DNA of 64,000 nucleotides from Flammula alnicola. Taxonomy: Eukaryota > Basidiomycota > Agaricomycetes > Agaricales > Strophariaceae. The DNA is taken from the NCBI GenBank assembly GCA_015499995.1, contig JADNRV010000239.1, forward strand, positions 1 through 64,000. Reading direction: 5' to 3'. Within the stretch, counting starts at the first letter, position 1. Each line of letters opens with the position of its first letter. The position numbers and the translations under genes are program-made. A model generated the notes under the pieces. It saw nothing but the letters and a program-made list of their open reading frames with translations, did no database searches and had not been told where the DNA came from. Of the stretch, positions 26,235 through 63,259 are shown in pieces.

Positions 26235-27117
26235 CTGGACTTTTTATACCGTATCGACCAGGTAAATTATATATTTTATATCTAGCCTTTTTGTCGGCCG
26301 CTTCTCCTTGACGGCGGCAAGCCTTACTCATTGTAACGTTGAAATCAAGTGATGAGAAGTTTTGATAAAGAAGCCAGCACATACAGTATCCTTATTATCG
26401 TAATTTAAATTCGTAGCAAGTTCAACCCCTAGCAATCCCTGTGCCCCAGGCTACACCGAAGATCTTTTTTGTTCCAGCTATATTCCAACTATATTCAAAA
26501 CGATAGACCTTTTTTGGCCGACGTTCAAGTCAAGACGTTGTTCCTTGGTGGTTTGTTTGTTTGTACGCTTGTTTGTAAGTAGGTAGCTAGCCAAATAGTA
26601 GTCATCCCAATTTCAATTTGGGCCGTCATCGATCATCGTCGATCGAGATCCCTGAGGAACTGAATCCCTGAAAGTTCAACATTCGTCTTTAGCTACAGTG
26701 TCAACGGCTCAAAACCGACATCCCGTGACCCGATATTTGATGACCTAACTCGTCCTGGGAAAGTGGCCAGAATTTTCCGAAAAGTGTGCCAATCGACTCA
26801 GATTGAATGTAGCTTTCGAGCCATCTGACTGTTTCCCCGGAATTCCTCGTTTGAAATTTTTTGATAGCCCAAAAGTGGATTTTGGACCCTGAGGACCCTT
26901 AATTTCTATATTAGGATGTGCCAGATATGGAAGGTAATATCCCGTGACCTCGCCGGTGACCGCGTGAGGGCAAGATTTGACAGGGAATCACATCAAATAT
27001 CTCGGAAACACTGTTTTTGGGCTTGAAGTGATGTTAATCCTTCAAGATTTCTCACCTAGACTCGCTCAAAGGGAGGTAAGTTTTTGATTTTTTCTTCCAA
27101 AAAGTGGATTTTGGTCA
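26235..27117. other. A2 3' flank and left half of an inverted-repeat element
   Basis: No gene. GACGTTGTTCCTTGGTGGTTT near 26533 and ACAGTGTCAACGG near 26696 recur inverted at about 33330 and 33157, beyond the hAT element. This suggests the hAT inserted into an older inverted-repeat element of about 0.9 kb. AATATCCCGTGACC and ACATCCCGTGACCCG are imperfect internal repeats. Confidence 0.4.
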
Positions 27118-27300
27118 CGTGATAGTAGTGTTGCCGTGACTCAGCTCAACTCGGCTGAGCTCAGCTAACGTGCGGCTTATTGATTTTACGGCTAGCTAAG
27201 CCGTAATAAGCTGCTAAAATTAGATGGTTCGGCTCAGCTAGTCGACTTGAGTCGACTAGCCGTGCCTTAAGGTGATATATATGGAAATATATGGAAATAT

Positions 27301-30300
27301 CTACAATACGGCGTCGTCGGTGGTACCCTCGCCACTTAGAAGACTGCTAAGATAGGCGGTCATGTCAGTGGGAATGCGAGTTTGTTCAGTCATAAGCTTT
27401 TCCATGTATTCTAACTCTGCCTGCCGTCCTGTACCTTCAGTAAAGTTAAGTTGTCGGCCCTTCTTGAGTGAAAATTTGAGCATTTGGAGCGCTTCCATGA
27501 GTTCGGGGCTGATTCGATTACGTCTGGCGGTTGTTGTTTCCTTTGCCGACGAGAAAATCCTTTCACAAGGTACAGATGAGCCCTGTATTGGCAAGATATC
27601 CATTGCTAATTGGAAGATAGCAGGAAAGCGAAGCCGATTATCCTTTGTAACAAGCTGCTCAGCACATAAGATACCACGTCGATAAATAAATAACTTACCT
27701 GCCAATACTTGATAGTACATGTACCGTGCTGTGCGAGAGGTTCAGATAGATAAGCAGAAACCTCAGCCATGAGACTTCGGCTCTGTGTTGAAACTGGAGT
27801 GGGGCCTAATCCAAGGAGAGCGGTTGCTCTAATGAAGTCATCAGAGTCGTCGTCAGAGTCGCCGTCGGAGTCGTCGTCGGAGTCGTCATCATCATCAGAG
27901 TCAAGCGCTGGGCCTCCACGTGGATGAGCTGGGGTATTAATAGTTCTCGCCGTGTACTTCTGAAGCTGTTGAATTGTATATTAGCATACATAGTAAAAAA
28001 CTTACAACCAGTGTGCATACCTTTTCGACGAAGAGTGTTCTTGATGACTCCAGTTCATTGGGAAGGTTTTTGCGAATCCACTCTAACTTCATTGATGGGT
28101 TGACAGCTAGACCATATGTCCATTTAAGTGTGTCATTAATACAGTTGAATGATTACTTACCCATCGCAAGCTTGTACGCTGGTGATAGAGATGTCCGCTC
28201 TTCGTAGTTTTCGAGTTTGTCAATTCCTGTATCAATAATGTCGGAGTACGTAGGGAACTTCTTCTTCATGTTCTCCCACAGGGTGATCATCGCTTTGAAT
28301 GCCGGTAGCGCACTGCAAAGTGTCGGTGTCTTCTCTGCTGATAAGGTTTGCTGGAAGGCATGAGGCACCTAAACGTGGTCACAAAATCAATAGGATAATG
28401 TTAGCATTGCGGTATTGATGCTTACAGCAAGTATTTTTGCATAGGAGCGAAGTACATTCCACTCAGCTTGAGTGAGCTTATACTTTTTGAGGTCGGGGTT
28501 TATCGAGAGGTACCGGTCAATGGGCTGACATCACCATCAGGAATAAGCTTATCGAAAAGATAGAAGAAAATACCGTGCTCAAAGCCAAACATCGGTGAAT
28601 CATCAGGTAGGTTGACGACTACCGTGTGCAGACATCCCTCAGTAGCTGCAGGTCCTTGAGTTTAAGGCTGCGGCAAACATCGGCGAATGCTTCTCGTCAT
28701 TGGGATGATGAACGAATCTTGAAATAAAGATGAGAAATGTAACATAACAGTAGCTAATGAGTACTTACCACCCGAACAATTGTTCGTATCATAGCAATAG
28801 GGTCGCGCCGAGCTTGTCCTTGCGGGTCATAATCTTCAGCTGTGTCGCTAGCGAAATCCATGTCTGTGATTGCAGTGAGGATGGCCTGACAGGCCAAATT
28901 CACAACATGTGGAAAGCATCTAATGAAAGAGACGGTAAATGTAAATTCAACAAGTAAAGGGCTTCAATCACCGAATCCTAAGCTCGATGTGATTAAAGGG
29001 GATGTTCCGAGGGTCAAGCTCGGACACAAGAGCTGCCATAAAAGTATCGTTATTACTAGCGTTGTCTAATGTTATCCACCCGATCTGGAGAAAAGTTTGT
29101 GAGCTTCGAAAGGTGGAAATTATTTGATATCTACCTTTTTTGCAAGATTTAATCAGTCTAAAACATGCATGAATGCAAACGCGAGGTGGTCACCAGTGTG
29201 TCGGCCGGGAACTCTGTGGAACCCGATAAGGTCGGCACGAAGCTTGAGGGTAACATCGACACCCCCTGCATTCCGAACTTCGGTAGCCTCCATCCAATGC
29301 GCTGTGACACCCATAAATGGTGTCAAATTGGGATCCGACCATAGATCCATGGTAAACGATATCCTGCTGATAGATTTCTAAGCAAAGAAAGTTAGTAAAT
29401 GTCAGAGGAGACAAGCACATGACGTACCGCCATTTGCTTTTCCAAGTCCGCAAGATATTCCTTGAAAATGACAAGGATGCGCTCTCGAATCTGTGTGCGT
29501 CGGGGGATGTCCGTGTCTTGCAAGCCTTTCCGAAGAAGGCGAAAGATATATCGAAGCTGGGGACACTCGATTGCATTGATGGACTGCCAACTTCGAGTCA
29601 GTTATCAGATTTCCTAATGACGACATAGACATACCTGATCATCTGCTACAATCCAATCAACTATCGCATCAGTAAATAACTCGTCCGTGTAATCGGGGAT
29701 GCCATCCTCATTTTTTTCTGAGGGTTTGCTAGGTCGCAGCCTTCCTTTCATTCTCAGATGTTCATCGACAAACGGCCTTGCCTCTTCTGAAGTAATTTCA
29801 ATTCCAAGGTCTTCGCATCCCGTAATCCATGAATCGAGGTGGTGTGTGTAGAGGTGCCTGCGAAGGTTGCTGTTGGCAGTAGTCGGGCCGTAGGATGCAA
29901 CACGATGTGAAGAATCTGTTCGCTCTTTCAAACTGGAAAGGCATCAGCTACATTGATTTGTTCTTGATGACCGAGAGAGGAATACTCACCGACAGAAGCA
30001 ACAATGACATCGGCCATCCACTATTTCATAGAATGTCTTGACATCCTTCGCATCTGAAGCGGCATTAGCAGCATTCGCACGTTCTGTTCGGGTTGGCGCT
30101 GCTGCAGGTGGAGGTGCCGCCTGGGTTGCGGGAGCAGGAGGTCTACCTGCTGCTGCTGCAGGTGCATCCGGTTGCGTTGAAGCTGGTGTTGGCGTTGGCG
30201 TTGGCGACCGCGATCGTGTATGTCGGTATTGCCGACTGTGGGGACCTGCACATGGTGAGACAGTGGAGGGTGTTGCAATCTCGTTGAGGCGAGCGAGGCG

Positions 30301-30659
30301 GAATGGGGACTCAGGCGAAAGGGATCGGTCCTGCCTGCCTTCACGAATGTTGAGGAAAGGATTTTCGTGAACAGGTGAAGGTGGGGGTTGATGCTCGTGA
30401 TGGTGGGTACGAGCTTGAGGTGATCCAGCTTCCGCAGGTAGAGTAGTAACACCGTCATTAACCTGGCCGCGGCCGCGGCCTCGTCCTCGTCCTCGCGCAC
30501 GTGGTCGTCCTCTACCGCCGCGACCACGTCCTTGTGGTTGTTCTGGATTGGGGGCTACAATGCGAAATAATTAGCCATAGTTCGAAAAAAAGGAGATTGA
30601 ACATGCTTACGATTTGAATCAAAGGTCGTAAAGAGACCTCCATTATCAAGAGGTTGCAT
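27301..30659 (-). CDS. hAT-family transposase
   Basis: The model starts MQPLDNGGLFTTFDSN, followed after an intron by an RG-rich region (RGRGGRGRPRARGRGRG) and a Pro/Ala-rich stretch. A BED-like zinc-binding segment has GRCHCCFCR and LRRHLYTHH. The RNase H-like core shows ISFTMDLWSDPNLTPFMGVT, HTGDHLAFAF, IGWITLDNASNN and IRCFPHVVNLAC. The C-terminal dimerisation region reads FPAIFQLAMDILPIQGSSVP, then ERIFSSAKETTTARRNRI. About ten short introns are needed; the exons I checked join in frame. About 900 residues are expected. It catalyses cut-and-paste movement. The gene sits close to the left terminus, with its 3' end about 175 bp inside the element. No disabling change was found by eye, though not every splice site was verified. 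Confidence 0.85.
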
Positions 30660-31469
30660 GGTTTCTCTGTTCGCACCTCGTGGAGGCATTGGAACCAAGT
30701 GTTTGATGTACGCCCACATTTCCGTGGCTTAAATATCTTGAAGTCGGTGACTTGCATGCGGATGCCTGATGTTCCATTGACAGGCACCCTTCACTGACCA
30801 TAAAAGTTAGTTAGCGACTTTCTGAGGAGGTTGCGGTATGGTATCTATCCTTGGATTTTGAGGCTTGTTCATTTTAGACGTCAAGAGAAGGCCTGCCAGT
30901 GCCGCCACATTGCGGTCACAAGGCTTCAGACAATACATATATTGGTAGGAACAATTAGTTGCTTACCTGTAAATGACATTGCCCTGAACAGCAGGCTTAA
31001 TCTCCGATAAACATGCCTCTGCCGACACACTTGGTGTATGTTCCGAGAGGTTCTTGAAGTTCGTTTGTTAGCCGGAATGTCTACAGAAATATGACAGCGA
31101 CAGCGAGAGGCCGGACTATGGGAATTCTCGGGTGGGGTTAGCAGCGAGGGAGATCGGGTTGTGACGCCACATACCTCATGTCGTTTTTCATCACCCTGGT
31201 GTTCGTTACACACTACTGCGCTGGCGTTGTTGTGGTTGACCAGCTTCGTGGCAGCGTGCGATGGTGACAGCGAGCTGTCGTCGCTCGTCGTCCTGCTTCG
31301 GCTGAGCTCCTCGTGATGTGTGGGTGAGTTTTGTGGTTGTACACACTGAACGGGAGTTCTATCGGGGGCCGCTTGGAGTGCGACGTCGACTAGGTGAAGC
31401 TGTACCCATCCCCGCCATACGAGCTGAATGAAATGGCAGACGAAGGCGGCTCAGACGCCGAGTCGGTGC

Positions 31470-31925
31470 TCATCCTCCTCTTGGTCGAGCGCGGGCTGAG
31501 GCCGAGGTCAATGTCTGCCAGTTCCAGAGGAGCACATCAGCGGGCATGCTGTACAAATAGTCAGGGTGGTACGGGCCAGGATAGGCGATCTGGAATGGGT
31601 TGTACATGGGAGCCTGGGTGGTGTCGGCGGTGGCACCCAAAGCACCCATCAGCTCTGAAGACAAGTTGCTATGGAAGCGGTCGTCCTCTCCGAACTCGTA
31701 GGCCATCTGGGTGGTCGAATCAGGAGCAAGGGTAGAAGAGGCCTCTCGGACAGGCGAGGTGCAGCGGCTAACCCCTGGGCTGGCAGAAGGGGTATCCTCG
31801 GGAGGACCAGTATGACAAGCATCATGCCTGGAGCGGTTTCGGATGTACACATTTGCAAACTGTCTTGCCTTCGTCTTCCTTTCTCCAGAGCGGGGTCGCA
31901 GTGCTATGGAAGTTGTAGCACACAC
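31470..31925 (-). pseudogene. Second captured fragment, 3' of the adaptin piece
   Basis: Minus-strand coding (RKTKARQFANVYIRNRSRHD, GEDDRFHSNLSSELMGALGA, YNPFQIAYPGPYHPDYLYSM) continues open for about 150 codons, in a frame different from the adjacent adaptin fragment. It does not resemble adaptin. It may be the tail of another host gene captured by the hAT, perhaps a transcription factor, but the family is not recognised. Confidence 0.35.
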
Positions 31926-32640
31926 GCATTTCATTCGACAGGATTTCAGGCCGCTTTTGGAGGAGGTTGATATTCCTAAGAGCAACCCATTGCACTTCAG
32001 GTGGAGAAGATAATAGTGCGGCCAAAGGAGGAGCCATTTTGCGGATAAGCTGCTTCGTGAGCTCTTCTCGACGCACACCACGCAGGTGGATCATGATAAC
32101 CTGTAACGGAAGTTGGATGCAAGTTTAATAAAGACATTTGTTCCGACAAACCTTGACAGCTGCCAGCACCACAGCGCCATTGACATGCCAGAATTGAGGA
32201 ATGACGCGCTTGCAGATGTGCTCGCTCTCCTTGTCATCTTGGGCAACATAACGTGCCAATGCATTCAGAATAGCCACGCGGCCCCACTCGGAGCATTCGT
32301 TGAGGGCGATCAGGAGTTTGTTCAAGATAGAGGCGGTGGAAGATCCCTGGGCCAGCGGAGGACGTTCGGGGTTGTGTGTGGCAGCAACGTGAATATCCGT
32401 CAATGCCGCGACCGTATTGGCGACGACCTGCGAAGAAGATCAGCCTCTATACCAACTTTCGAGTCGAGTACATACCATGGGATTACTATCAGCGATCATG
32501 CATCGATCATGTCCTGCAACTGCTCCAAGAAGCAGTTGTCAATGACGAGCTCCAGCTTGAGATCGTACAGCTTAGCAACGCACAGCGCCGCCGTCTTGCG
32601 CACATAATGATTCTCGTCTCGGAGACACTTTCTGGGTGCT
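31925..32640 (-). pseudogene. Captured beta-adaptin (AP-1/AP-2 beta) fragment inside the hAT
   Basis: Reading minus strand from about 32640: [40 protein letters not shown], then after an intron NTVAALTDIHVAATHNPE, NKLLIALNECSEWGRVAILN, VNGAVVLAAVKV, and after a second intron KMAPPLAALLSSPPEVQWVA, LRNINLLQKRPEIL. These are consecutive pieces of the adaptin N-terminal trunk of clathrin adaptor beta subunits. Both introns are still present with GT-AG ends, so the capture was of genomic DNA, not cDNA. An 11-bp duplication near ATGATCGATGCATGATCGCT (about 32490-32510) shifts the frame before SNPM. Similarity stops after SNEMRV near 31925. It is a non-functional passenger. Confidence 0.88.
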
Positions 32641-33040
32641 GGAGGTTTTCGTGGGCGAGCCTCGGTGGCGTGGTCAAGTCACCTGCGTGTTCCTTCTCAC
32701 ATTCATCGGTGCATTATTCCTCGCAGTTGTAACAGGAGTAAACGGCTTTGACGACTGTCGTAAAAGCGTTGGCCAGGCGGGGGTTATTTGGGTGGTAAGG
32801 GTGAAGACAAGGGCGCAACGTTGGTTGAGAGACTTGCCGGGCATCACGTGCAGAATTGCCTGCTTTGGATTGGCAACTGCAAGCGGCTTGAGCGGCTTGA
32901 GTCAACTTATAAGTCGGCTTATAAGATAGCCGCTCGGATTTAGCTGCAAGCTGTTATTTATAACTCGGCTCAGCTAGCCGTGCGGCTGAGCCGATCCGGC
33001 TAGCGAAAATGAGCCGAGTCGCGGCAACACTACGTGATAG

Positions 33041-33354
33041 GCGAAATTTCGGAGATTGCATTTTTACGCATATTCTACCCACTTTCCATCCTAGTTTTGA
33101 AAATCTCGGTCAGGAAACAAAAATTGGCTCCGGCCCTGAGAGGCCGGGTCTTGCCCGTTGACACTGTACGTTCCTCGCCAACCAGCTCTGTACTTCAGAA
33201 CAACTATTATACTAGTAGGGTTGTGGTTCAAGTTGTCAAGGGGAATAGTACAAATCGTCCTGATCGGCACCTATTTGGCACCGTCTGATGAACAAAGTCA
33301 ACAAACAAACCGCTGAGGAGCAACGTCAACCTCAGGAAAACCATTGCATACATA
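33041..33354. other. Right half of the inverted-repeat element around the hAT
   Basis: No gene. It contains the inverted counterparts of the sequences at 26533 and 26696 (AACAAACAAACCGC..GAGCAACGTC near 33300 and CCGTTGACACTGT near 33155). Confidence 0.4.
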
Positions 33355-33943
33355 TAAGGTAGGCGCCATCAGGAACTGGCTACCTTATGTAAGCGCTTAT
33401 ATAAGCGGCAAAATCTGGCCTTCAGGAAAAAATAAATATTTTAGACGGTATTTTCAGTAATAATTGAGCCAAGCATGGGTGAAATTATTTTTGACTTACA
33501 TTGGATAGAAATGGATGCATTTAGGCCCACTTTAATGCCATAAATTCTTGCCCAGACTTGCCCCCACACGGTGTGTTTGAAGCATAGTTGTCGGCAGACG
33601 ATGCCGCTCGGGCCGATGGTCGCCGACCTACCTATTATAGTAGCTTACATAAGAACCCTAACCCTAAGTCGCGGCAAAATCTTGAGGTCAAAAATCTGAA
33701 AAGTTGCAGAATGAACGGAAAGGCACGAAAAAACACTCAGAAAAAAAATCAGGTTTTTCCAAGAATGGTTAATAACTCTCTCAAAAGTTACTCAATTTTA
33801 AATCGGTCTCCTGGGAGTTGCAAGGATGCTCAAAGGCTTCAATTCTGCGATCTTAGAAATGTGGGAAAATTGTTTGTGGCCGAGGAATAAGAGCTCGTCG
33901 TTCGCTTATGTAAAGGTGCCGGTTCCTGATGGCGCCTACCTTA
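33355..33943. repeat. MITE, 589 bp, TA target site
   Basis: The inverted termini TAAGGTAGGCGCCATCAGGA and the reverse complement of TCCTGATGGCGCCTACCTTA match perfectly over 20 bases and extend imperfectly to about 45. Each end is flanked by TA (33353-33354 and 33944-33945), as for Tc1/mariner-type non-autonomous elements. No transposase was seen. Confidence 0.8.
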
Positions 33944-34344: not shown

Positions 34345-37067
34345 ATGTCTCATCGCACTATTCCCATCCTTGTTGGCACCCCACAATGCAACTCAACGAC
34401 GCTGTTAACACCTGGCCCTAGCACCATCCCCGTCACCCAGGCGCCGGTCAGAAACCCTGTCGCAGCGATGTCGTCCTGGCAGGTTTCGTCATGCCTTTTG
34501 TCCGGAAATCACGATGGTTCGTCTGTGAATCCTAGCATCACGGGGGCCACGTGCAGTTCTTCTCAACCTGTGGAGGAAGCTACTTCGGGCTGGACGACTC
34601 GCGATCATATGCTGGATTTTTTCAAGTGGAAGCCGGCTACTTATGCCAAAGCAAAAGCTCACGGAGCTTCCTGTGGCACCAGGGCCCCGAGGCGCTTCGA
34701 TTTACACATGCACCAAGACCTACAAATGAAGAAGGTAGTAGTACTCGACGGTCTGGCTGGAGTGCTTTCAAGGCTTGGCAACGAGTATCTTCTAGATGAG
34801 CGTGCACCCTGGAACTCTTTTGAAGTTGATGTTGACAAAAATCTCTTCCCCCACGCCAAGCGTCGTGCAGATGTTCTTAAAAAAATCCCTAAAATAACGC
34901 GAGAAAGGTCTCTAGCGCAGGTCTATGGAACACAAACAGGGAAATTCTGCTCAGCCGTTGCTTCGAGCCTCATCTTCAAGTCGTCAGAATGGAACCGTGT
35001 TTTCAAATGGCGGATAGAACCGAGTAATCCCCAGCGCTTCGCCATAGCCGATGGCTTTCTGTCGATTGATGAGAAAATGATCGGCTGCTTGTCGAACGAA
35101 GACAAACTCAATGTGGAGGCAATAACACGACACGGTCTGGACAATTTTGCGCTTTGGGAATTTAAAAGTTCTGACCGCCGGTACCGAAAACGTCATGAAT
35201 GCGCTTGCAGCCCTTGAGGGCGACTTCGAGTGGATAACATGCCATTCCGTCAAAGACTTGGAACTCAGTGACGTCGAGAGGTGTGACCACACGCAACACG
35301 TTGTGAATGGGCGTTGGGCTTTAACCGGGAGTAGGGTTGGTCCCGATGCCAATGATCAGTGGATTACTGACGCCTGCAAGGAAATGGAATACCATGAAGA
35401 CCTCGAAGCTCGAGCTGGATCGGCCGCTCCATCTGGTCAAACTACAACTTCGCAAGGCGGCCACAACATTGGCAAAGCACGAGGACCAGCGAAGACAAAG
35501 GCAAAGACCCTGAATAACCCGAAATCCTTGAAGAAGACTTTGATACAAAAACCCACGGTCTCGCCAAGGCGCGAATTCAAACTTAACGAGATACAGAAAG
35601 CGCGCCATATCCTTCAACAGGTAATGCTCTGTTAACATCCCTTTTCTCGTTAATAACATCTTTCGATTCCTAGGGATGGGCGGAAGCGGTCTTAAATGAT
35701 GCTACATTCATTGTCTTTACATCCGGCAATTTAGAGATAATCGGTATTCGACACCGAGAACGGCAAACCCTCTACATATCTCCTCTGATTTACTCCACCA
35801 AAGAAGAAAATCCTTCACACGGACAACTCATGACCTCCCTCTTCATTGCGGCCTACCGAGACGCCGTAGACCGCGCCATCCAGTTGGATGCAATCGGACG
35901 TTGTCCACAGCACACTTGGCCGGCTCTATATCGCCTAATTTTCGATGCGAACGGCAATTTCATGAATACGACTTCAGAGCCCGGCGAAAGCGCCATCAAT
36001 ATTGTGCGTAGCTGTTCTTGTGGTAACCATTTCTATTCAACGAGATAATATTATTAGAGCTTATTGCAAGAGCTAATGGCTGTCGACGTCATATCATGCA
36101 GCCTTCAGCTACCTCCCCGGATTCCTGAACTACAACCCTGTCGTCGCCGCAGTATCTTGATAGGTACAACCCCGATTGAACATGACTCGAAGCTGCGCCT
36201 TCTCGCTCGCAAAATGATCACAGAAAAAGTTTGGGAGTTTTCTCTGTGCAGAGTCGACGACGACGACAAAGAGTGCGAATACTACTCCTCTCATTTGGTC
36301 GTGAAATTTGCGAGAGATGAAATGGAGTTAGCCGCCCTATTGGTCGAATACGACAACTACCGCCAACTTTCTGGTATCGCATCGTCGGTTCTGGTTCGGA
36401 CTTTCGGAATCTTCAGTTTTGACGCCACGGAGCATCTATATGGACTTCTCATGGACCATGGCGGTCTGAATCTTAGTCAGCGGCTGCAACGCTACAAGAA
36501 GCCTAAGACCCATGCAAAATTTCTGAAGGATAATAGGTCAGTCGGCGATCGCTGGATTCATTTAATACCCAGAATACTGACATTCCTATTTTCAGTGCTC
36601 AAATATTGGAGGCGTTAGATACTTTGCACGGAATTGGCTTTATTCATGGAAGGATCCTCAAGGAGCATTTCGTGATCACAAAGGGAAGAAAAGTCTCGAT
36701 AATCAGCTTGGGATCATGCAAGGAAATTATTTCTGTCCTCTTCCCAGAGGTCACAGATTGGCAACCCAAGCATGCTTCCTCTAAACGCCGTCGCCCTGTC
36801 AAGACACAAAGCCAGACACGAAACCCTGTCCTTGGTAACGACGAACTTGTAACGAAGAGACATCAAACCAAGGAACGCAAAATATTGTCGGGGTGGCTAA
36901 CTTTAGAGACGTTCAAGGACAAAGGTTTGCGGGCAGACTCGAATCTTGCGCCAATTGAGGAGGAAGGGGAGGAGGAGGAGGAGGAGGAGGAGGAGGAGGA
37001 GGAGGAGGAGGAGGAGGAGGAGGAGGAGGAGGAGGAGGAGGAAACAATGGAGGTCGACCACGACTGA
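34345..37067 (+). pseudogene. B2: nuclease-like / pseudokinase gene with one-base insertion
   Basis: The start MSHRTIPILVG is followed by a low-complexity leader and the B signature WTTRDHMLDFFKWKPATY, GASCGTRAPRRFDLHMHQ. The nuclease-like core reads RFAIADGFLS and, about 35 residues later, ALWEFKS, giving D and E-x-K. Directly after EFKS an extra T (near 35170, compared with B4 AAAAGTCTCAC) shifts the frame; the coding then resumes as LTAGTENVMNALAALEGDFE. The middle module (DATFIVFTSGNLEIIGIRHR) follows an intron with an intact tag acceptor. The kinase-like part lacks HRD and DFG (IHGRILKEHFVI, IISLGSCKE). The C-terminus has a GAG-repeat poly-Glu tract. Apart from this single base the gene looks intact, so an assembly error or recent loss are both possible. 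It ends about 160 bp from the convergent URB1 stop. Confidence 0.82.
36968..37042 (+). repeat. (GAG)n microsatellite coding poly-Glu in B2
   Basis: About 25 uninterrupted GAG/GGA triplets encode a poly-glutamate run near the C-terminus. The other B copies have only four or five Glu at this position, so the tract expanded in B2. Confidence 0.9.
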
Positions 37068-48967: not shown

Positions 48968-49039
48968 TATGAGTAGTCTGAGGCCCAAATTTCATTTGTT
49001 TTGGATGTCTTAATGGATATTCGTGCCAACGATTTGGAT

Positions 49040-49110: not shown

Positions 49111-49428
49111 TGTCAAGACGTCAACTTTGTTGATTGATCTCATTCACGTTTGTATAAGTACTTGCCAGCTCACTGCCCTGCCTTTCTTTGCGCCCCGTCT
49201 TGGATGAGCTGGGAGTGCACCACCTGCGGGGGGCCAGCCAGTCGCATCTGATCAAAATTCGTTGCTGACTATTGTTTAATACAGGTTTTCTGCCATTCAA
49301 GTTCATGTAGAACTGCTTCGCAGTCTTCTGACCGCGTCAAGGGCAATGTCGCTCTGGAAGGGTCACAGAATGTGTTGCGAACATAAACAAGTGAGTAATG
49401 TCGATATGTTGCCTACCAAGAGCTATTC

Positions 49429-52400: not shown

Positions 52401-53711
52401 CAGCCATTTCGATTGATTTCCGAGGAATAAGTAGATGGGCCACAGAGATGCATTCCCAAAGCTTGCAAGATGCGTCGAGTCTGACCAAAACATGAGGGCA
52501 GCAACTACACGTTCAAGCTCGCATCCGGGCTCTGCTGGAAGGTTTTGGACTGCTTCGTGGGCCTCTACCATGGCGTCTGAAGAGTATATTTCATCGTAAA
52601 CGCGCTGGGCCTCGCTGTCAGCGGTAGGCTTCCAAAATTGCTTGAACGGTGTATAGTGGAAACAACGGGATGCGGAATCTTCGAAAGCTGCCTTGATAAC
52701 TGCTATGAGTGACCGAAAATGTAGACCAGGCACCGAAAACGTAGGAATGTCATTGTCTGAGACACATCCTCGACCAGTAGGGACTTGAATGTCAACCTCG
52801 ACTTCATGCCAGCCGTCCTTGATAATGGCAGGTCCTTCCTTCGATAAATTCCTTGGTCCTGATAAACTGGAAGAATCTTCGAGGCTAGCGTCAAACTTGG
52901 CAGTTTCTTTTCGAATGTCGAAGTCGATTAAATCTTCCTTTTTGAAGTCGTCAGATTTAAGGAAATTCAGGAGCTTGACCATCTCGCCGATTGACTTCAT
53001 TGCCGAGCCAGACCACATCCAATTCATCAGTCCAAATATGGTTGAGTTGGCAAATGGAAAGTAGCTAGGAGTTGTTTCCGCAGATCCAGATGTGATGCTG
53101 TTGTCCTCCAGGATCACAGACAGGCGTGAGTTGGTAGCGACAGGTGCATCGGTTGCGACCTGAGGAGGCGTAATGTCGGACATGTTTTCGAGGGTAAGAA
53201 GGTCGTCTGGGTTGTGGGTAGGGACCGAGGGATATTCGCGATACATTCCAAAGGAATTCTTGAGGGTATGGGCGGCTTTCCATACATACTGAGGAGTTGC
53301 ATCTGAGTCAGGTTCAGGCGCTGGCTGTGAGTTGGGAACGATTTCTGGGAGCGTTGCTGCGGCCTCCGGTAGAGGTCCTCTAGTGCCACAGGATCTTCCG
53401 TGATCTTGTGCCCTGTCATACTCAGCCGGCTTCCATTTGAAGAAATCTCGCATATGCTGGCGTGTTGTCCAAGTTGCAGCCGGTATCGCAGGTTTAGCAG
53501 AAGAATTGCCAGATTGTGCGCTAGACCTCGTAGACAAAGAATCGCGATTTGCGGACGCAAGGCTTGAAGGGCCTGGCTGAGGGAAGGTACTGGTCGCAGG
53601 TTGTTCCCCTCGTTCATGGATGGTTAGCAAGGTGCCAGTAGCAGTGTCAGGTGACAGGGAGCCGCTTTGCTGTGTGGCCGTGGCAGGAAGGGGGGGATTT
53701 GGAGAAGACAT
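49429..53711 (-). CDS. B3::Plavaka chimera, in-frame fusion of B N-terminus to a Plavaka transposase
   Basis: The start MSSPNPPLPATATQQSG and the next 110 or so residues (WTTRQHMRDFFKWKPAEYDR, HGRSCGTRGP) are nearly identical to B4. At about 53376, right after CGTRGP, the same open frame passes into Plavaka-type transposase: FGMYREYPSVPTHNPDD, KDGWHEVEVDIQVPTGRG, FSVPGLHFRSLIAVIKAAFE, TPFKQFWKPTADSEAQRVYD, AALMFWSDSTHLASFGNASL. Later exons give LGACPCPRCLIPKERIPELG, MLVVDFMHEWELGVWKATFI, AFYHGGTETLLKGLSVARGE, YFYVNL-FVDRDMYMRYAGN and an acidic tail (EDEEEEEGEGEGEGDDDE) ending GYAPL. The first ORF is uninterrupted across the junction, and the later exons I checked join in frame, giving about 1,290 residues. 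The N-terminal zinc finger usual in Plavaka proteins is missing, and the rest of B3 was not found downstream. Whether the fusion is expressed is unknown. Confidence 0.82.
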
Positions 53712-54421: not shown

Positions 54422-56771
54422 CTAGGGTGTCAGCTGTGGTGAAAGACTGTCATCAGTTTCGTCAGTTTCGTCGTCTTCGGTCGATTCCGTTCCTTCCTCC
54501 TGCGCCTCTTCACCTTCGTTCTCTTCTTTACCGCGTCCTTCATTCCCCTCAATGCAATTCACAATACCCCGTAATTCATCTAATTCATCTGCAAACACCT
54601 CAGCGTAGGCGCACAACCCAGCGCGATCAAAGTCAATGACGGAGACCTCATTGTCGTCGTTAACTAAGAGGTTATCCAGCCGAATGTCACGGTGAAGTAT
54701 CCCTCCTCGATGAATCCCTTCGAGCGCTCGTAAAAATGCGTCGCTAGAGATCGCAAAGTATCAGATCAGAGCAGAGGTAGGTAATTGGAGAACTCACACT
54801 TCTATCTGGGGAACATATACTTCATCTTTCTTGAATTTGCTATCCTTTTCAAGCTCCCTAGTCCTGAGGCTCTTGCCGCCATGATCCATCACCAAAGCCA
54901 TAGTGCTGGTTTCGATATCTTGAAAAAGTCCATGAACACGAATGACACCCTCGACAGTCTGAACCGAAGCCAGGTGTGCGTACATATTGTATTCGTTTCG
55001 CATCGATGTCTGCTGTGCCTCTGAGAAACCCAATTTGACCAAACACCTGTGGGACAGTTTTTCGCCGGAATCTGTCTCGACCTCGATCACTGCTCGATGG
55101 ATGACACCTACGGCGCCTGTTCCGATGGGTGCCTGCAATGTGATCATCATGAAGTGGCTGGAAGAATACACGGCTTTCCTGGCCGGCTCCTTAAAAGAGT
55201 CATCGAACAGACCAGGAACACAGCTCGAGCCCTGACGAATGAAAGACGATGGCACCGGCGATCGATAATGTTCATAGTCAAGCCTGATAATTGCCAATTC
55301 TCGCGAGCTGATCTCTTTCGCAGTCTACAGAAAATGAATGAGCAAAGCTGGAAACTAGATCGTGAACGACCTACTTCGTCTGCCTTGTAAACTCCGCCCT
55401 CGTTGTACACCCTTGGGAAAGTCTGCGGACTGACTTTCCTTCGTTTGCTAGGAGATGATGGAGGACTTTCTAAGTTTTCTGTAGACCGCTTGCGAGTGGG
55501 AGTTCCTGGAGTAGTAGGTGATCCGCCGGTATTCTTTTTTGCTTTGTACCTTTCCAGCGCATCCTGCAAAATGGCTATGTGCAGTCCCATATGAATCTTC
55601 CTGTATTTTGGGTTCTTGCAGTGGACGGTGTCGATTGCATTAGAGAGGTAGAGTGTTTGAGATGCTCGATGACGTATACCAATGCGTTCGTATGTCCCAC
55701 AGTTGAAAATCAGGAATGTGGCATCATATTTCACAGCCGATGCCCATGTCTGGGAAGGGATTAATAAGATCCAGTGATCTGCGAGATAATGTAGTCACTT
55801 ACGCGCTGGATATAATCGTTTCCGTTAAGACGATATTTCCGGCGAGTCACCCCGCGCCGACCCGGTACTTTAACCTGGACAACTTTAGGTTTGAGTGCTG
55901 AACTTTTATCATGGATTGGAGCGATGACGATGTGAGATGTTGTCGAAGTAGCCGAGAAATCACGTCTGATGTTAGGTCCTTTCGCCACGACACGTTTGGA
56001 TCGTTGATATTTCGGCATAGTCTCGTTGGGTAGTACCGTCTTTGGGGCATCCAGTGGAGGGCGTAATGGGGTAGTTGTTGGGTATCCTGTTGTATGCGCT
56101 CCTTCCCATTTAAATTGAGGTGTTGCCTTCATCCGAGTCACAAGAGTCTCTCCAGATTTCGTAAGAGCAAAAAAAGACCACACAGCTAGCCAAGGGAAGG
56201 TTCGAGGAAACTCTTCCATCATGTCAAAAGTTGCTTTGTCAAAGGATTCGACTAGAGATTGGGGTATAAAGGGGTTGGAAGAGAGGGATTTATAAAAGGG
56301 GAATAATCTGCCTTCTCTCAGAAATAGATTTTCTTCGTCGTCATATCCGACATTGAATGTTGAAAACCCAAACAAGCACGACCAAGCTAACTCCTGTGGA
56401 TGGATACAAAGCTTCGAGGCATATCTAATGCACGCGCGCGCCACACACGCGTAATACTGCTCCCCTACATCTTCAGAATCGTCCATAGTGGCCGGGTCAT
56501 TTTGGGGAAATAGATAGTCGTGGCGATAGAAATGGTGACCAGCTGCGGTAAAGGCTCCAAGCATCCTGTCCCATTCAGCGGATAGGTCCTGGGAAAGAGA
56601 AGGTGCGGCTTTAACATGTTTGAGGATTAAATTAGAGTCGATGTGTCTGTCATAGAAGGTAATGGGGTTCTGAATGGCCTGAGGGACATCTGGCCGAGTT
56701 TTCAATGGCGGGTAGTTGTACTCTAACGCGTCCTCGAGGATTGATGCAAAAGGATCATCTGAAGAGAGCAT
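54422..56771 (-). CDS. A3: kinase-like protein with inactive nuclease-like N-terminal domain
   Basis: Nearly identical to A1, with all four exons and their splice sites intact (CAGCGC|gtaagt, GATGAA|gtaggt, GAAGT|gtgagt). The nuclease-like region again reads VWSFFALTKSGE where B has E-x-K. Middle module: DATFLIFNCGTYERIGIRHR. The probable nuclear signal is KRRKVSP. Kinase motifs are GTGAVG, CLVKLGF, NEY, LHRDIRLDN and VIDFDRAG. The acidic tail ends SPQLTP. High identity to A1 in exons, introns and promoter indicates a recent duplication or gene conversion. It is transcribed toward the B3::Plavaka chimera, in the same order as the other pairs. Confidence 0.82.
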
Positions 56772-57097
56772 AGCAGCCCAAGATAATTGGAATCTGGTGG
56801 CACATTTATGTGAGCTAATAAGCTCCCGAAATCAACAAACATTGTTACGCACCGGTTTTGCCGTCTGACGCTCTGGATGTCGAGCAACCCCGAAACACTT
56901 TGTTATAACCCAGAGGTATAAGGCTCAACCTCTAAGTTACGGTTGACAAGATGTATGAAAGGGAGAGCGGCGAACATGAAGGCAACGCAAAGGTCGAAGT
57001 CAGGTGAAGGTAGAGCCCATTGTTAAACAAGGAACATTCATTGATTCAATATTGGAAAGTCACTGTTGACACTGTTGAATTTACAACCTGTCACGTG
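56772..57097 (-). promoter_or_regulatory. Promoter of A3 with CACGTG box
   Basis: CACGTG at 57092-57097 lies about 321 bp upstream of the start. The block between is almost the same as the A1 proximal promoter once the A1 insertion is removed. Confidence 0.5.
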
Positions 57098-57566
57098 ATC
57101 GGGCGCTTATAACTGACAAACATTAGCGAGCCAGAGCCAGAGGTACTTACTCTACTGTTGTGAGTCCTTTTTAACTCTCGTCGACTATTTCACGCACTGA
57201 TCACAACCTTACTTCTGCCATCTATCATCCAGTTATGTTGACCGTCCGTATCTTTGTTCGACATACTTATTATGAGAACGCCGGCATTAGCAGAAGAAAC
57301 GTCGCGCATTGCATTCCCTTCTCCAATGTTTTTCTCTCGACGTATTCTTCCCCAGGTTTAAAAAATATGCGGAGATCAGTACATTTCTAATCCAACAGCT
57401 CCCTCGAGCTGTTATTCGGAGTCCAGTCTTATACCCACCAAATCGCTTTACCATGATGCTGTTCAGAATATTCTATGTGACTCCTGTAAATACATATACT
57501 TAGACAAGGATCAACGTTTGCGTATCGATAGAAACTAAAATACAGTAAATCATGAAATAAATCTAT
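57098..57566. repeat. Duplicated segment between B4 and A3
   Basis: From about 57483 leftwards the sequence is the inverted counterpart of 16818-17081 (shared AGAATATTCTGAACAGCAT, AAATGTACTGATC-type strings and GCGCTTATAA). A 57130-57330 portion has no match in the A1 flank. The remaining 57484-57566 is the B4 3' flank, shared with B1 (TCTATCGATAYGCAAACGTT). Confidence 0.6.
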
Positions 57567-60294
57567 TCACTCATTGTCGACCTCCATTATTTCCTCCTCC
57601 TCCAAAATGGGCGCAAGGTCCCGATCTGCCGGCGAATCCGAGTCTTCTTCCTTGAAGGTCTCCGAAGTGAGCCACCCCAACAGCATTTTACGTTCCTTGT
57701 TCTGGTGTCTTTTCGTTACGAGTTCATCGCTACCAACATCAGGGCTTCGTGTCTGGCTTTGCGTCCTGACGGGACGCCGACGTTGAGCGGGCGCATATTT
57801 GGGTTGCCAGTTTGTGATCTCGGGGAAGCCGACCGAAAGAATTTTCTTGCATGATCCCAAGCTAATTATCGACACTTTCCCTTTCTTCGTAATCACGAAA
57901 TGCTCCTGGAGGAGCTTTCCATGTGTGAAGCCAATTCCGTGCAGAGTATCCAACGCTTGGGTGATTTGAGCACTGGAAATAAGAATGTCAATATTCTGGA
58001 AACTAAAGGAAATATGACCTTCTAGGCCGACTGACCTATGCTTCTTCAGAAAACTTGCATGTGTTGTAGGGCTCTTGTCGTGGTGCAGCGAGTGACCAAG
58101 ACTGAGACCGCCATGGTCCATGAGAAGGCCATACAGATCCTGATTGGCGTCGAATGTGAAGATCCCAAAAGTTCGGACCAGAACCGGCGATGCGATACGA
58201 CGAAGTTGACGGTAATTGTCATGTTCGACCTGTAGGGCAGCTAACTCTGTTTCATTTCTGGCAAATTTCATGATCATCTGCGACGAATAATATTCCTGCT
58301 CTCGCCCCTTGTCGTTGACTCTGCTCAGATCGAACTCCCAGACTTTCTCCGAGATCATTTTGCGAGCGATAAGGCGCAGGCTCGATTCACGGGCTACCGA
58401 CATTGCTGCCTGTGGTAAATCATTATGGCGACGACAGGGTTGAAGGGCATCAGTCCGTGCAAAAGGCAAACGAAGACTGCACGGTATAACATTCTCGGAC
58501 ATGAGCTCTCCGAGTAAGTTCTGCAATGATACGTTATTGATTGGGACTAGAAATCACAAGAACAGTTGCGCACCAGATCAATCTCGCTCTTAGTGGACTC
58601 CGTATTCGTTCCCAGGAAATTTCCGTTTGCATCGAAAGTAAGGTGATACAGCGGCGGCCAGGTGTCCTCTGCAGAATTTCGAATTTCGTCCAACTGGAGG
58701 GCGCGATCTGCGGTATCTTGGTAGCCTGAAATGAAGAGAGAAATCATAAGTTTTCCATGGGCAGGCTTTTCGTCTTTGGTGGAGTAGATAAGAGGCGATA
58801 TATAGAGGGTTTGGCTTTCGCGGTGCCGAATACCGATGATTTCTAAATTTCCGGACGTGAAAACAATGAATGTGGCATCGTTCAAAACAAGTTCCGCCCA
58901 TCCTTACGAGTTGAAATTAGATCTTATCGAAGAGAGGGCCGTGTTTCAATAGGATCAAGACTTACCTGCTGGAGGATGTGGCGGCCTTTCTTTTTCTCGC
59001 CGAGTTTAGCTTTGTCCATCGGGGAGGTAGCCGGTATTTGCTTCAAAGTCTTCTGTTGAGTCGAGGTTTTGGCGGAGCCATTGCGCAACCCCTTCTTCGA
59101 TCCTTTTGCTGGCTGTCGACCTGCTGGAACGCTAATATTCGTCTGCGAAGTGGTGGCTTGGGTTGGTGGAGCCGTCGATTCACTGGCCCCCACCAATGGA
59201 GCATCTTCATATTGCGACGATGGTTCTGATTGTGAAGAGCCGGTCTTCGCCTGAGTTTCCTTTCTCAAACAGGCATCGATAATCCATTGATCCTTTGCGT
59301 CGGGACCGACTCTACTCCCTGTTACCGCCCAACGCCCATTAACAACGTGTTGGGTGTGGTCACACTTCTCCTTGTCGGAAAGCTCTACATCGTTGACAGA
59401 GTGACATGTTATCCATTCAAAGTCGCCTTCAAGCTCTCCAAGTGCCTTCATAATGTTCTCAGTACCAGCAGTGAGACTTTTAAATTCCCAGAGAACAAAG
59501 TTATCGAGGCCATGTCGTTTTATGGCCTCGACCTTGAGTTTGTCTTCGGTCGACAAACAGGCAATCTCTTTGTCAGATATCGAGAGAAAACCGTCAGCTA
59601 TTGCGAAACGCTGAGGAGTGTCCGGTTTCGTCCGCCATTTGAGCACCTTCTTCCATGCTGGTAACTTGAAGATAAAATTTGAAGCAATGATCGAGCAGAA
59701 TGTGCCTGTTTGCAATTTGTAGACGTATGCGAGTGATCCCTCTTGCGTTATCTGAGGCAGCATTTTGGATATATCGTCACGGTACTTGGGATGTGGGAAG
59801 TCCTTCTCGCTAAGATCGACTTCCAGAAAGTTCCAAGGAGCTTGCCTGTCTCGAAGGTAGTCAGAGCCCAGTCGTGAAAGAACTTGAACCATATCCTTGA
59901 GCACGACGACTTTCTTCATTCGCAGACCTTCATGCATGTGTAGATCGAAGCGCCGAGGTCCTCTAGTGCCACAGGATCTTCCGTGATCTTGTGCCCTGTC
60001 ATACTCAGCCGGCTTCCATTTGAAGAAATCTCGCATATGTTGGCGTGTTGTCCAAGTTGCAGCCGGTATCGCAGGTTTAGCAGAAGAATTGCCAGATTGT
60101 GTGTTAGACATCGTAGACAAAGAATCGCGATTTGCGGACGCAAGGCTTGAAGGGCCTGGCTGAGGGAAGGTACTGGTTGTAGATTGTTCCCCTCGTTCAT
60201 GGATGGTTAGCAAGGTGCCAGTAGCAGCGTCAGGCGACAGGGAGCCGCTTTGCTGTGTGGCCGTGGCAGGAATGGGGGGATTTGGAGAAGACAT
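57567..60294 (-). pseudogene. B4: nuclease-like / pseudokinase gene with lost splice acceptor
   Basis: This is the best preserved B copy. It starts MSSPNPPIPATATQQSG, then WTTRQHMRDFFKWKPAEYDR and RRFDLHMHEGLRMKKVVVL. The nuclease-like core has RFAIADGFLS (D near 59593) and VLWEFKSLTAGTEN (E and K at 59479-59487). The first exon ends HILQQ|gtaagt. Exon 2 should begin GGATGGGCGGAA, as in B2, where tag precedes it; here the two preceding bases (58906-58905) read AA. Use of the shifted AAG would put a stop eight codons later. Reading through the intron stops after PSLR, giving a 456-residue protein with only the nuclease-like half. The middle module (DATFIVFTSGNLEIIGIRHR) and pseudokinase part (THGKLLQEHFVI, IISLGSCKK) remain open downstream. 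Confidence 0.8.
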
Positions 60295-60916
60295 ATGTAG
60301 ATGATTTGGAAAAACTACGGCCCATGATTTATATTCCTTGTCGGACTACGCCACCCACGCTTGAAGCGCTTGAAGAAGCTTGGTGACTAGGCCCGAGTAC
60401 ATCAAACGAAGGCTCATCTGCGCTGCTTTCAAATCGCCCAGTATTTTCCAAATCCGATCCTTGATTACTGCCAATTATTGACAGTTGGTTCCCAGGTCTA
60501 ACTGCGACTGGCAGACACAGCAGACATGTCGAGGCAGCAATTGTGTGTAGATGCGTTGAAACGAGTCCTGAGCGGAACGTGGGAATTTCTTGACAATTGA
60601 AAATATCCAACGCTTGTCGCTCCGAATTTGGATTGGCCATGATTGGCCCCGAACAACAAACAGAAGACTCTCGCTACTACCAACTCGCTACGCAAACTTA
60701 TTTCTGAACAAAAGACCCAGGAGTGCTTGGCCGGATACTAATGTTTCGGTGTGGCTTAGGAAAAAAGGACGTGGATAGTTGTGGCGAATCACACAGGAAT
60801 CACAATCTGCTACTACTGTCTTCGAGTCGACTGCTGGATACGCCGCCACAACCGACTGGCATCGGCAAATAATAAGCCAAAAATTAGGGCCAATATACGA
60901 ATCTTTATAGTATGGT
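60295..60916. other. Spacer between A4 and B4
   Basis: Closely related to the A3-B3 spacer and, in part, to the 47361-47640 relic. It should contain the B4 promoter and the A4 3' untranslated region. No extra gene was recognised. Confidence 0.45.
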
Positions 60917-63259
60917 CTAAGGCGTCAGCCGTGGTGAAAGGCTGTCGTCAGTTTCGTCAGTTTCGTCGTCTTCGGTCGATTCCGTTCCTTCCTCCTGCGC
61001 CTCTTCACCTTCGTTCTCTTCCTTACCGCGTCCTTCATTCTCTTCAATGCAATTCACAATACCCCGTAATTCATCTAATTCATCTGCAAACACCTCAGCG
61101 TATGTGCACAACACAGCGCGATCAAAGTCGATGACGGAGACCTCATTGTCTTCGTTAACTAACAGGTTATCCAGCCGAATGTCACGGTGAAGTATCCCTC
61201 CTCGATGAATCCCTTCAAGCGCTCGTGAAAATGCGGCGCTAGAGATCGCAAAGTGTCAGATAAGAGCAGAGGTAGGTAGTTCGACAACTCACACTTCTAC
61301 CTGGGGAACGTATACTTCATCTTTCTTGAATTTGCTATCCTTTTCAAGCTCCCTAGTCCTGAGGCTCTTGCCGCCATGATCCATCACCAAAGCCATAGTG
61401 CCCGTTTCGATATCTTGAAAAAGTCCATGAACACGAACGACACCCGCGACGGTCTTAACCTTAGCCAGGTGTGCGTACATATTGTATTCGTTTCGCATCG
61501 ATGTTTGCTGCGCCTCTGAGAAACCCAATTTTACCAAACACCTGTGTAGTTTTTTGCCGGAATCTGTCTCGACCTCGATCACTGCTCGATGGATTACACC
61601 TACGGCGCCAGTTCCTATGGGTGCATGCAATGTGACCGTCATAAACTGGCTAGAACTGTACACGGATTTCCTATCTGGCTCCTCGAAAGCGTCATTGAAC
61701 AGACCCGGAACACAGCTTGGGCCCTGACGTATGAAAGACGATGGCGCCGGCGATCGGTAATGGTCGTAATCAAGCCTGATGAGTGCCAATTCTCGACAAC
61801 TAATTTCTTTCTCAGTCTACAGGATATGATCGAGTGAAGCTGGTGAGAAGAGTGTGGATAACTTACTTCGTTTGCCTTGTAAATACCACCCTCGTTGTAC
61901 ACCCTGGGTATAATCTCTCCGCTAGCCTTCCTTCGTTTGCTAGGAGTTGATGGCGCACTTTCTAAATTTTCTGCAGACCGCTTGCGACTGAAAGTTCCTG
62001 GTGTAGCAGTGGAGCCGTCGGTACTCTTTGTCACTGTGTACCTTTCCAGCGCATCTTGCAAAATCGCTATGTGCAGTCCCATATGCAGCTGCCGGTATTT
62101 GGGGTTCTTGCAGTGGACCGTGTCAATTGCATCAGATAGATAGAGCGTTTGAGATCCTCGATGACGTATGCCAATACGTTCGTATGTCCCACAGTTAAAA
62201 ACCATGAATGTGGCATCGTATTTCACAGCCGATGCCCATGTCTGCGAAGAGATTAATTCCGTGAACTGTAAGATAATGTATAATTACTCACGCGCTGGAT
62301 ATAATCGTTTCCGTTAGGGCGATATTTACGTCGAACCACCCCGCGCCGACCTGGTACTTTAACCGGGACAATTGTGGGTTTGAATACCGACTTTTTGTCG
62401 CGGTTTGGCGCAATAACCCCGTGAGACGTTGTCGAAGAAGCCGAGAAGGCTCGTTTGATGTTGGGTCCTCTCGCCAAGACACGTTTAGATCGCTGATGTT
62501 TTGGCGTAGTCTCGCGGGACAATACCATCTTTGGGGCATCCAGCGGAGGCCGTAACGGGGAGTTTGTCGGGTATCCTGTTGTATGTGCTCCTTCCCATTT
62601 GAATTGAGGGTTGCCTTCATCCGAGTCACAAGAGTCTCTCCAGATTTCGTAAGAGCAAAAAAAGACCACACAGCTAGCCAAGGGAAGATTCGAGGAAACT
62701 CTTCCATCATGTCAAAAGTTGCTTTGTCAAAGGATTCGACTAAAGATTGGGGTATAAAGGGGTTGGAACAGAGGGATTCATAAAAGGGGAACAATCTGCC
62801 TTCTCTCAGAAATAGGTTTTCTTCGTCGTCATATCCGACATTGAATGTCGAAAACCCAAACAAGCACGACCAAGCTAACTCCTGTGGATGGATACAGAGT
62901 TTCGAGGCATATCTAATGCACGCACGTGCCACACAGGTGTAGTATTGCTCCCCCACCGCTTTAGAATCGTGCATGTTGGCCGGTTTATCCTGGGGAAACA
63001 AGTAGTCGTCGCGATGAAAATGGCGACCAGCTGCAGTAAAGGCTCCAAGCATCCCGTCCCATTTAGCGGATAAATCTTGAGGAAGAGAAGGTGCTGGTGC
63101 AACATGTTTGAGGATTAAATTTGAGTCGATGTGTCTGTCGTAGAAGGTAATGGGGTTCTGAATGACCTGATGGATATCCGGCCGAGTTTTCAAGGGCGGG
63201 TAGTTGTAATCTAACGCGTCCTTGAGGACTGGTGCAAAAGGGTCATCTGGAGAGAGCAT
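60917..63259 (-). pseudogene. A4: kinase-like gene with one-base deletion
   Basis: Same plan as A1 and A3. The start is ATGCTCTCTCC at 63259; an in-frame upstream extension to 63292 exists but is not shared. The deletion lies near 62609-62612, where A3 reads GAGGTGTTGCC and A4 GAGGGTTGCC on the plus strand. It breaks exon 1 after VTRMKAT, shortly past the VWSFFALTKSGE segment. The correct frame resumes as PQFKWEGAHTTGYPT. The rest is open: middle module DATFMVFNCGTYERIGIRHR, kinase motifs GTGAVG, CLVKLGF, LHRDIRLDN and VIDFDRA. One Arg/His codon is missing before CLVK relative to A1. Called a pseudogene because of the single frameshift, but a sequencing error could restore it. Confidence 0.8.

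What the first reader, a model, noticed from the sequence alone, without database searches (positions are those of the whole stretch)
54422..63259. A-B module: paralogous neighbours with reciprocal loss of nuclease and kinase motifs
Seen: A and B align along their whole length by eye, share an intron before (T/G)WAxxV..DATF, and sit co-oriented A then B in four places. B keeps RFAIADGFLS and LWEFKS, fitting the D...E-x-K of PD-(D/E)XK nucleases, but has HGK and SLGS where kinases have HRD and DFG. A keeps GTGAVG, VK, HRDIRLDN and DFD but has WSFF in place of WEFK, and LTEG in place of IADG. Inference: after duplication each partner kept the half the other lost, so the two may work as an obligate pair (one nuclease-active, one kinase-active subunit). 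Fungal FunK1-like and crinkler-type proteins combine similar domains in one chain; a split, complementary, amplified pair would be new to me. It could act in incompatibility, drive or genome defence.
Basis: partly seen in the sequence, partly recalled or inferred. Interest (0 to 1): 0.9.

Follow-up and report, generated by a model that had tools for sequence, protein, structure and literature searches.

The report
Split nuclease–kinase gene pair in mushrooms
A mushroom genome carries repeated pairs of neighbouring sister genes in which one keeps the likely DNA-cutting part and the other keeps the kinase part, a pattern that looks like a two-gene poison and antidote.

Summary
The window is from the mushroom Flammula alnicola. 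A and B are whole-length paralogues (hhalign E 6e-49) sharing three introns and alternating head-to-tail. In 26 aligned rows, D and E-x-K are complete in 10 of 10 B and 0 of 16 A; kinase catalytic residues are kept in 16 of 16 A; both catalytic Asp are lost in all B rows reaching them (9 and 8). A tree separates A and B at 100/100. Pairs recur at other Flammula loci, in Agrocybe chaxingu (consecutive locus tags) and Cyclocybe aegerita (one merged model). All 8 Flammula B places with the nuclease exon have an A neighbour; a Lyophyllum B came without an A, and A also occurs alone. Closest precedent: SPOK spore killers, whose nuclease kills and kinase protects in one chain; B resembles kinase-dead SPOK, A nuclease-dead SPOK. 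I propose a two-gene toxin (B) and antidote (A), about 45% likely. The nuclease fold rests on motifs and predicted secondary structure; fold searches reached only the kinase, and no SPOK sequence could be compared. Here B1-B3 are damaged, B4 has an odd splice site, A4 a frameshift.

The parts
54425..56771 (-). A3: intact 4-exon gene, 730 aa (stop codon just below 54425); degenerate nuclease-like N-terminal part, complete kinase motifs
   Evidence: Spliced alignment; identical to annotated BDZ97DRAFT_2082013, P0001; Pkinase E 7.1e-14 at 512-667
57570..60294 (-). B4: nuclease-side gene; D234, E270-x-K272; pseudokinase
   Evidence: The usual GTAAGT donor at 58965 puts exon 2 out of frame; a weaker GT at 58961 keeps the frame
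58962..60294 (-). B4 exon 1: open frame with the D...E-x-K motifs and Cys/His set
60920..63259 (-). A4: like A3 but with a frameshift at about 62610 in exon 1
   Evidence: annotated as a 625-aa model (P0002)
53373..53711 (-). B3: stub, first 113 residues of B only
   Evidence: 94% identity
52317..54104 (-). Open frame joining the B3 stub to a Plavaka transposase
   Evidence: PF18759 E 9.9e-14
18554..20898 (+). A1: A copy without frameshift
20986..22179 (+). B1: 5'-truncated B (no nuclease exon, frameshift at about 21654)
23899..26231 (+). A2: A copy without frameshift
34345..36983 (+). B2: B copy with a frameshift at about 35170; the copy on contig C845 (217612-220249) has none
26697..33941 (.). 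Insertion between A2 and B2, absent from contig C845

Best explanation
A and B descend from one nuclease-plus-kinase protein that was duplicated in an ancestor of several Agaricales. Afterwards B kept the PD-(D/E)XK-like active site and lost the kinase one, while A did the reverse, and the two stayed next to each other and multiplied as a unit. Most likely working: B is a toxin that cuts or damages DNA in nuclei that lack the pair; A, a kinase still carrying the body of the family, neutralises it by phosphorylating B or a shared target. This would be a two-gene version of what SPOK spore killers do in one chain. Shown here: homology, reciprocal motif conservation, separate clades, repeated adjacency, low dN/dS in older duplicates, and presence or absence of a whole unit between two contigs that look like haplotypes. 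Inferred: nuclease fold and activity, kinase activity, toxicity, rescue, and any drive.
For: Motif table: B has D, E and K in 10 of 10 rows; A has K in 0, E in 8 and D in 1 of 16. A keeps beta3-Lys, alphaC-Glu, HxD-Asp, Asn and DFG-Asp in 16 of 16; B has the HxD-Asp in 0 of 9 and the DFG-Asp in 0 of 8 rows that reach them. Mean pairwise identity, A (16 rows) / B (9 rows): N-terminal part 0.29/0.35, kinase 0.44/0.32, shared DATF block 0.46/0.45. dN/dS, N-terminal and kinase: A3-A2 0.28 and 0.12; B4 against C845 B2 0.21 and 0.30. Tree 100/100. A and B distances correlate, r 0.967, 7 of 5040 permutations as high; without the C67 pair r 0.974, 7 of 720. In Flammula 8 of 8 B places with the nuclease exon have a co-oriented A neighbour; A alone at C79 and C848. 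A whole B-A unit is on C129 and not on its partner C778. The B model shows helix, strand, strand (D161), helix, strand (E195, K197), helix ... helix, strand, strand, blocks of pLDDT 82-95 except 47 for residues 151-160 just before D161; the A model has the same order. SPOK precedent: K240A loses killing and keeps resistance, D667A is toxic and suppressed by wild type (PMC6660238 passages); kinase-mutant SPOK1 is toxic with DNA damage in E. coli and yeast (PMC9972908 passages).
Against: No sequence profile links B's N-terminal part to a nuclease and the fold searches covered only the kinase. No SPOK sequence was at hand, so kinship with SPOK is untested. Both sets of contigs carry the window arrays, which gives no sign of drive at this locus. 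For C129 Ba-Bb the N-terminal part is not more constrained than the kinase part (0.33 against 0.28). In this window B is damaged or doubtful in 4 of 4 copies. A Lyophyllum B was found with no A from that species among the hits. In 5 of 7 other species with an A no B was found. No expression or cross data.
Confidence: 0.45

Rival explanations
1. Obligate enzyme complex: A and B form a heterodimer in which A's kinase switches B's nuclease on for genome defence (against transposons or viruses) or for self/non-self recognition; neither works alone.
For: Whole-length paralogy suits heterodimerisation; pairs stay together; a transposase frame lies in the array; the bacterial defence kinase MAD6 is the best PADLOC match of A3's kinase, E 6.5e-13, though that may be no more than shared kinase sequence.
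Against: A occurs without B in Flammula (C79, C848) and was found without B in several other species, which an obligate partner should not do; no model of the complex was possible.
Confidence: 0.27
2. Ordinary lineage-specific expansion of kinase-like genes: B's D, E and K are structural or bind metal without cutting nucleic acid, and the pair regulates some host pathway.
For: Kinase-like families are large here: FunK1 gives 147 matched stretches in this genome. No nuclease profile match for B.
Against: The triad is complete in 10 of 10 B rows and in 0 of 16 A rows, and D and E-x-K lie on strands of the model as expected for PD-(D/E)XK.
Confidence: 0.18
3. Decaying selfish or transposon-linked repeats with no present function; the motif patterns are relics.
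For: Stubs, frameshifts and insertions in many copies.
Against: dN/dS well below 1 in both genes across older duplicates and copies without frameshift at other places.
Confidence: 0.1

Closest known systems
SPOK spore killers (Podospora, Fusarium; single-gene meiotic drivers)
   Same: Predicted PD-(D/E)XK nuclease and an eukaryotic-like kinase; killing and resistance map to the two active sites; several copies, often near transposable elements; a Cys/His cluster in the protein (PMC6660238, passages)
   Different: SPOK carries both active sites in one chain; here they sit in two neighbouring genes, each dead at the other site. Sequence kinship not tested; the SPOK homologues in the passages read are from Ascomycota, this is a basidiomycete
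Crinkler-type REase-plus-kinase proteins
   Same: Nuclease-superfamily domain coupled to a kinase; toxicity ascribed to the nuclease (review PMC5289972, passages)
   Different: No Crinkler family among the Pfam matches; the passages read do not describe a split into a pair
FunK1 fungal kinases (PF17667)
   Same: Fungal kinase-like genes in large numbers
   Different: A3 scores 13.0 bits against a cut-off of 24.1; none of the A or B places is among the 147 matched stretches listed (107 of 223 candidates scored)
Linked or dual-transcript toxin-antidote drivers in general (wtf; cidA-cidB of Wolbachia, recalled)
   Same: Poison and antidote inherited together; antidote-only copies are described for wtf (PMC12941216, passages)
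   Different: Here the two parts are full-length paralogues with complementary active-site loss

Membership tests
PD-(D/E)XK nuclease superfamily (B) | D ... (D/E)-x-K active-site residues | tested here: met
   10 of 10 B rows; spacing D to E 34-36 residues in 9, 25 in Lyophyllum
PD-(D/E)XK nuclease superfamily (B) | alpha-beta-beta-beta-alpha-beta core carrying those residues | tested here: inconclusive
   Secondary structure of the model fits, but fold searches were filled by kinases and hardly tested residues 1-474
PD-(D/E)XK nuclease superfamily (B) | Profile match to a known nuclease family | tested here: inconclusive
   None seen in Pfam, PDB sequences, PADLOC or NCBIfam
Protein kinase superfamily (A) | Kinase profile with Lys, Glu, HxD, Asn, DFG-Asp | tested here: met
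   PF00069 E 7.1e-14, over its cut-off; residues in 16 of 16 rows; kinases lead the fold search
Active kinase (B) | HxD and DFG aspartates | tested here: not met
SPOK family | Active nuclease and active kinase sites in one protein | tested here: not met
   No A or B row keeps both
SPOK family | Sequence homology to SPOK / meiotic drive suppressor kinase | not testable with these tools
   No SPOK sequence or profile was at hand
SPOK family | Cys/His cluster (C-x3-C-x13-C-x5-H-x7-H) upstream of the kinase | tested here: inconclusive
   B has C297, C311, H316 (B4 numbering) between E-x-K and the DATF block, the same in all B rows with a residue there; A does not have them. Spacing differs among B
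SPOK family | N-terminal coiled coil | not tested
   -
SPOK family | Killing and resistance in crosses | not testable with these tools
   Needs experiment
FunK1 (PF17667) | Score over the curated cut-off | tested here: not met
   13.0 of 24.1 bits for A3; weak matches in 6 of 18 members, best E 0.0018
Crinkler effectors | Crinkler N-terminal header | tested here: not met
   No Crinkler family among Pfam matches of A3 and B4 or the 17 families matched by the 18 members of A5

The most novel reading that the evidence does not exclude
A two-gene toxin-antidote driver of mushrooms that arose when a SPOK-like dual enzyme was duplicated and each copy lost the other's active site, so that poison (B) and antidote (A) became separate, tandemly amplified, co-evolving genes, natural counterparts of the laboratory kinase-dead and nuclease-dead SPOK mutants.
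Probability: 0.38. Interest if true: 0.92.

Novelty: new variant of a known kind. Interest (0 to 1): 0.78.

Why it matters
How SPOK poisons and protects with one protein is open: a 2025 paper argues that two forms of the protein should exist, one toxic and one protective (PMC12693581, passages). A natural family in which the two halves are separate genes would let poison and antidote be expressed apart, would help show what the kinase must act on, and would put a candidate killer system into basidiomycetes. My searches of the paper library for SPOK or spore-killer terms with Basidiomycota or Agaricales gave 0 papers and 2 papers (seen as listing and abstract starts only; neither abstract start names such a system); a 2026 review of meiotic drive has no word beginning with 'basidiomycet'. 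The reciprocal loss is also a clean case of one dual enzyme becoming two complementary half-dead enzymes.

Tried and rejected
FunK1 membership was tested and rejected. Nuclease profiles: none was seen for B; a weak PADLOC match of P0014 to PDC-S18 (E 0.002) was followed up and dropped as chance. A third protein search with a joint A/B alignment gave one new protein, P0018. Fold searches with both full-length models listed kinases and proteins holding kinases, plus a few unnamed viral entries; no nuclease was named for the N-terminal part, which says nothing about residues 1-474 because the list was filled by the kinase. Searches for further B places in the genome found none (the tool scores only the best candidates). 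A SPOK comparison by sequence was not possible. Zhang et al. 2016 is not in the library; I know it through PMC5289972 and PMC12693581 and from recall.

Rows left out before the motif count: A4, C848 A (P0004), C79 A, C797 A3 and A4, C845 A1 and A2 (P0003), P0002, partial P0011 and P0012, fragments on C507 and C685, B1, window B2, B3, C797 B4. Most are alleles, fragments or frameshifted copies. Some kept rows are near-identical (A1 and A3; C129a and C778). The tree flags Lyophyllum B, Volvariella A and Mycena A as long branches.

Full report
What the window is. The window is bases 1-64000 of a 72.5-kb contig (C156) of a 74.4-Mb assembly (contig length). Its A3 protein is identical to an annotated Flammula alnicola protein, an agaric of the Strophariaceae. 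The assembly seems to hold two haplotypes (my inference): C845 206-224 kb matches window 14.5-41 kb at 96.7-99.7%, and C797 matches window 46-64 kb at 96-99% without 47.7-54.3 kb.

Gene anatomy. On the minus strand the finding holds A4, B4, A3. A3 has exons 56771-55803, 55749-55375, 55324-54798 and 54743-54425 and equals the annotated model. B4 has exon 1 from 60294 to 58962 or 58966, then 58902-58574, 58520-58036 and 57972-57570. Its usual intron-1 donor gives a frame change; a weaker donor 4 bases on keeps the frame, and RNA data are needed to tell whether B4 is sound. Outside the finding lie A1-B1 and A2-B2 on the plus strand and the stub B3. A1, A2 and A3 have no frameshift; A4 has one; B1 lacks the nuclease exon and has a frameshift; B2 has a frameshift that its copy on C845 lacks; B3 is a 113-residue stub in a Plavaka transposase frame. 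So in this window A is sound in 3 of 4 copies and B beyond doubt in 0 of 4.

A and B are paralogues. hhalign of 11 A against 4 B proteins gives probability 100, E 6e-49, 574 columns; A-B identity within six pairs is 18-22%. The three introns match in place, with phases 0, 0, 2 in A3 and C845 B2 (from coordinates). An ML tree of 26 rows puts A and B on the two sides of one branch with 100/100 support, with Lyophyllum B, Volvariella A and Mycena A as long branches.

The reciprocal loss. The motif table is the core result. B keeps D, E and K in 10 of 10 rows: six from Flammula (five places, one of them as two alleles), two from Agrocybe, one each from Cyclocybe and Lyophyllum. A never has the K (0 of 16), has E in 8 and D in 1. 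A keeps beta3-Lys, alphaC-Glu, His and Asp of HxD, Asn, and DFG-Asp and Phe in 16 of 16. B lacks the HxD Asp and the Asn in 9 of 9 rows that reach them and the DFG-Asp in 8 of 8, but keeps beta3-Lys (10 of 10) and alphaC-Glu (9 of 9). B alone has an invariant second Gln of a QQ pair before the DATF block (His or Arg in A) and a C, C, H set after E-x-K (one search asked for at least 8 of 10 rows with a residue). Conservation swings the same way: N-terminal part 0.29 in A (16 rows) and 0.35 in B (9 rows), kinase 0.44 and 0.32, with the shared DATF block equal at 0.46 and 0.45 as an internal control. dN/dS of older duplicates is below 1: A3-A2 0.28 and 0.12, B4 against C845 B2 0.21 and 0.30, C129 Aa-Ab 0.28 and 0.18 for N-terminal and kinase parts; C129 Ba-Bb, 0.33 and 0.28, does not follow the reciprocal pattern, C129 Aa against C67 A is saturated at silent sites, and very recent pairs are noisy, up to 1.07 for the N-terminal part.

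Pairs elsewhere. Genome searches with A3, B4, a Galerina A, and Agrocybe and Lyophyllum B proteins (the tool scores only the best candidates) find diverged pairs on C129 (B-A-B-A), C778 (B-A) and C67 (A-B, B split by an insertion). Eight places keep the B nuclease exon (C156 B2 and B4, C845, C797, C129 twice, C778, C67); 8 of 8 have a co-oriented A neighbour, 8 kb away for C156 B2 and closer for the others. A stands without B on C79 and C848; A fragments on C507 and C685 were not followed. The second C129 unit is absent from C778 between short matching flanks (614 and 211 aligned columns), and B is absent from C79, the partner of C67. Outside Flammula, Agrocybe chaxingu has A as NLJ89_g1617 and B as NLJ89_g1618, both with a contig length of 45,698, so neighbours by locus tag. 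Cyclocybe aegerita has one 1333-residue model that runs B then A, with B's end missing, probably two genes merged by the annotation. A second Agrocybe B (g8927) has unknown neighbours. Against the rule stands Lyophyllum: a B was found, and no A from that species was among the hits. A homologues of Galerina, Hebeloma, Psilocybe, Volvariella and Mycena came without a B hit. The B search scored only the 7998 candidates sharing most words, so absence is not shown in either direction. A and B distances between pairs correlate (r 0.967, 7 of 5040; r 0.974, 7 of 720 without C67); joint tandem duplication alone gives part of this.

Mechanism. SPOK proteins of Podospora carry a predicted PD-(D/E)XK nuclease and a kinase in one chain. 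K240A abolishes killing and keeps resistance; D667A is toxic in vegetative cells and is suppressed by the wild type (PMC6660238, passages). Kinase-mutant SPOK1 is toxic to E. coli and yeast with signs of DNA damage (PMC9972908, passages). B is by its residues a natural kinase-dead form and A a natural nuclease-dead form. Hence the proposal: B poison, A antidote. Facts that fit: in Flammula B with its nuclease exon is not seen without A while A is seen without B; in this window B copies are more damaged than A copies; a whole unit differs between two contigs. Facts that do not help: the Lyophyllum B, both contig sets carrying the window arrays, and no expression, cross or activity data. The chief rival is an obligate nuclease-kinase complex for defence or incompatibility; solitary A genes speak against it.

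Novelty. Nuclease-kinase proteins are known (SPOK; Crinkler-type, PMC5289972 passages). A two-gene, reciprocally inactivated and co-amplified form was not seen in the paper searches, judged from listings, abstract starts and the passages read. I therefore call it a new variant of a known kind; kinship with SPOK itself is untested.

Noticed in passing
52317-54104 (-): A Plavaka transposase open frame holds the first 113 residues of a B gene (B3 stub).
   Followed up: partly
26697-33941: About 7.2 kb between A2 and B2 is present here and absent from contig C845.
   Followed up: partly
47718-54326: About 6.6 kb including the B3 stub is absent from contig C797.
   Followed up: partly
L009, L010 (C129:17200-23700) against L011 (C778): A whole B-A unit is present on one contig and missing from its partner between short matching flanks, so probably presence/absence between haplotypes.
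   Followed up: partly
L019 (C797:7873-10195): The C797 copy of A4 needs 12 frameshifts in 2.3 kb, perhaps poor sequence near a contig end.
   Followed up: no
12497-15124 (-): An Exo_endo_phos2 match (E 3.1e-23) and weak WD40-type matches, probably an inositol-phosphatase-type host gene bordering the array.
   Followed up: no
G000 whole genome: FunK1 kinases (PF17667) are expanded: 147 matched stretches (several per gene), separate from A and B.
   Followed up: partly
58962-60294 (-): B carries a Cys-Cys-His set after E-x-K that A lacks, reminiscent of the SPOK Cys/His cluster.
   Followed up: partly
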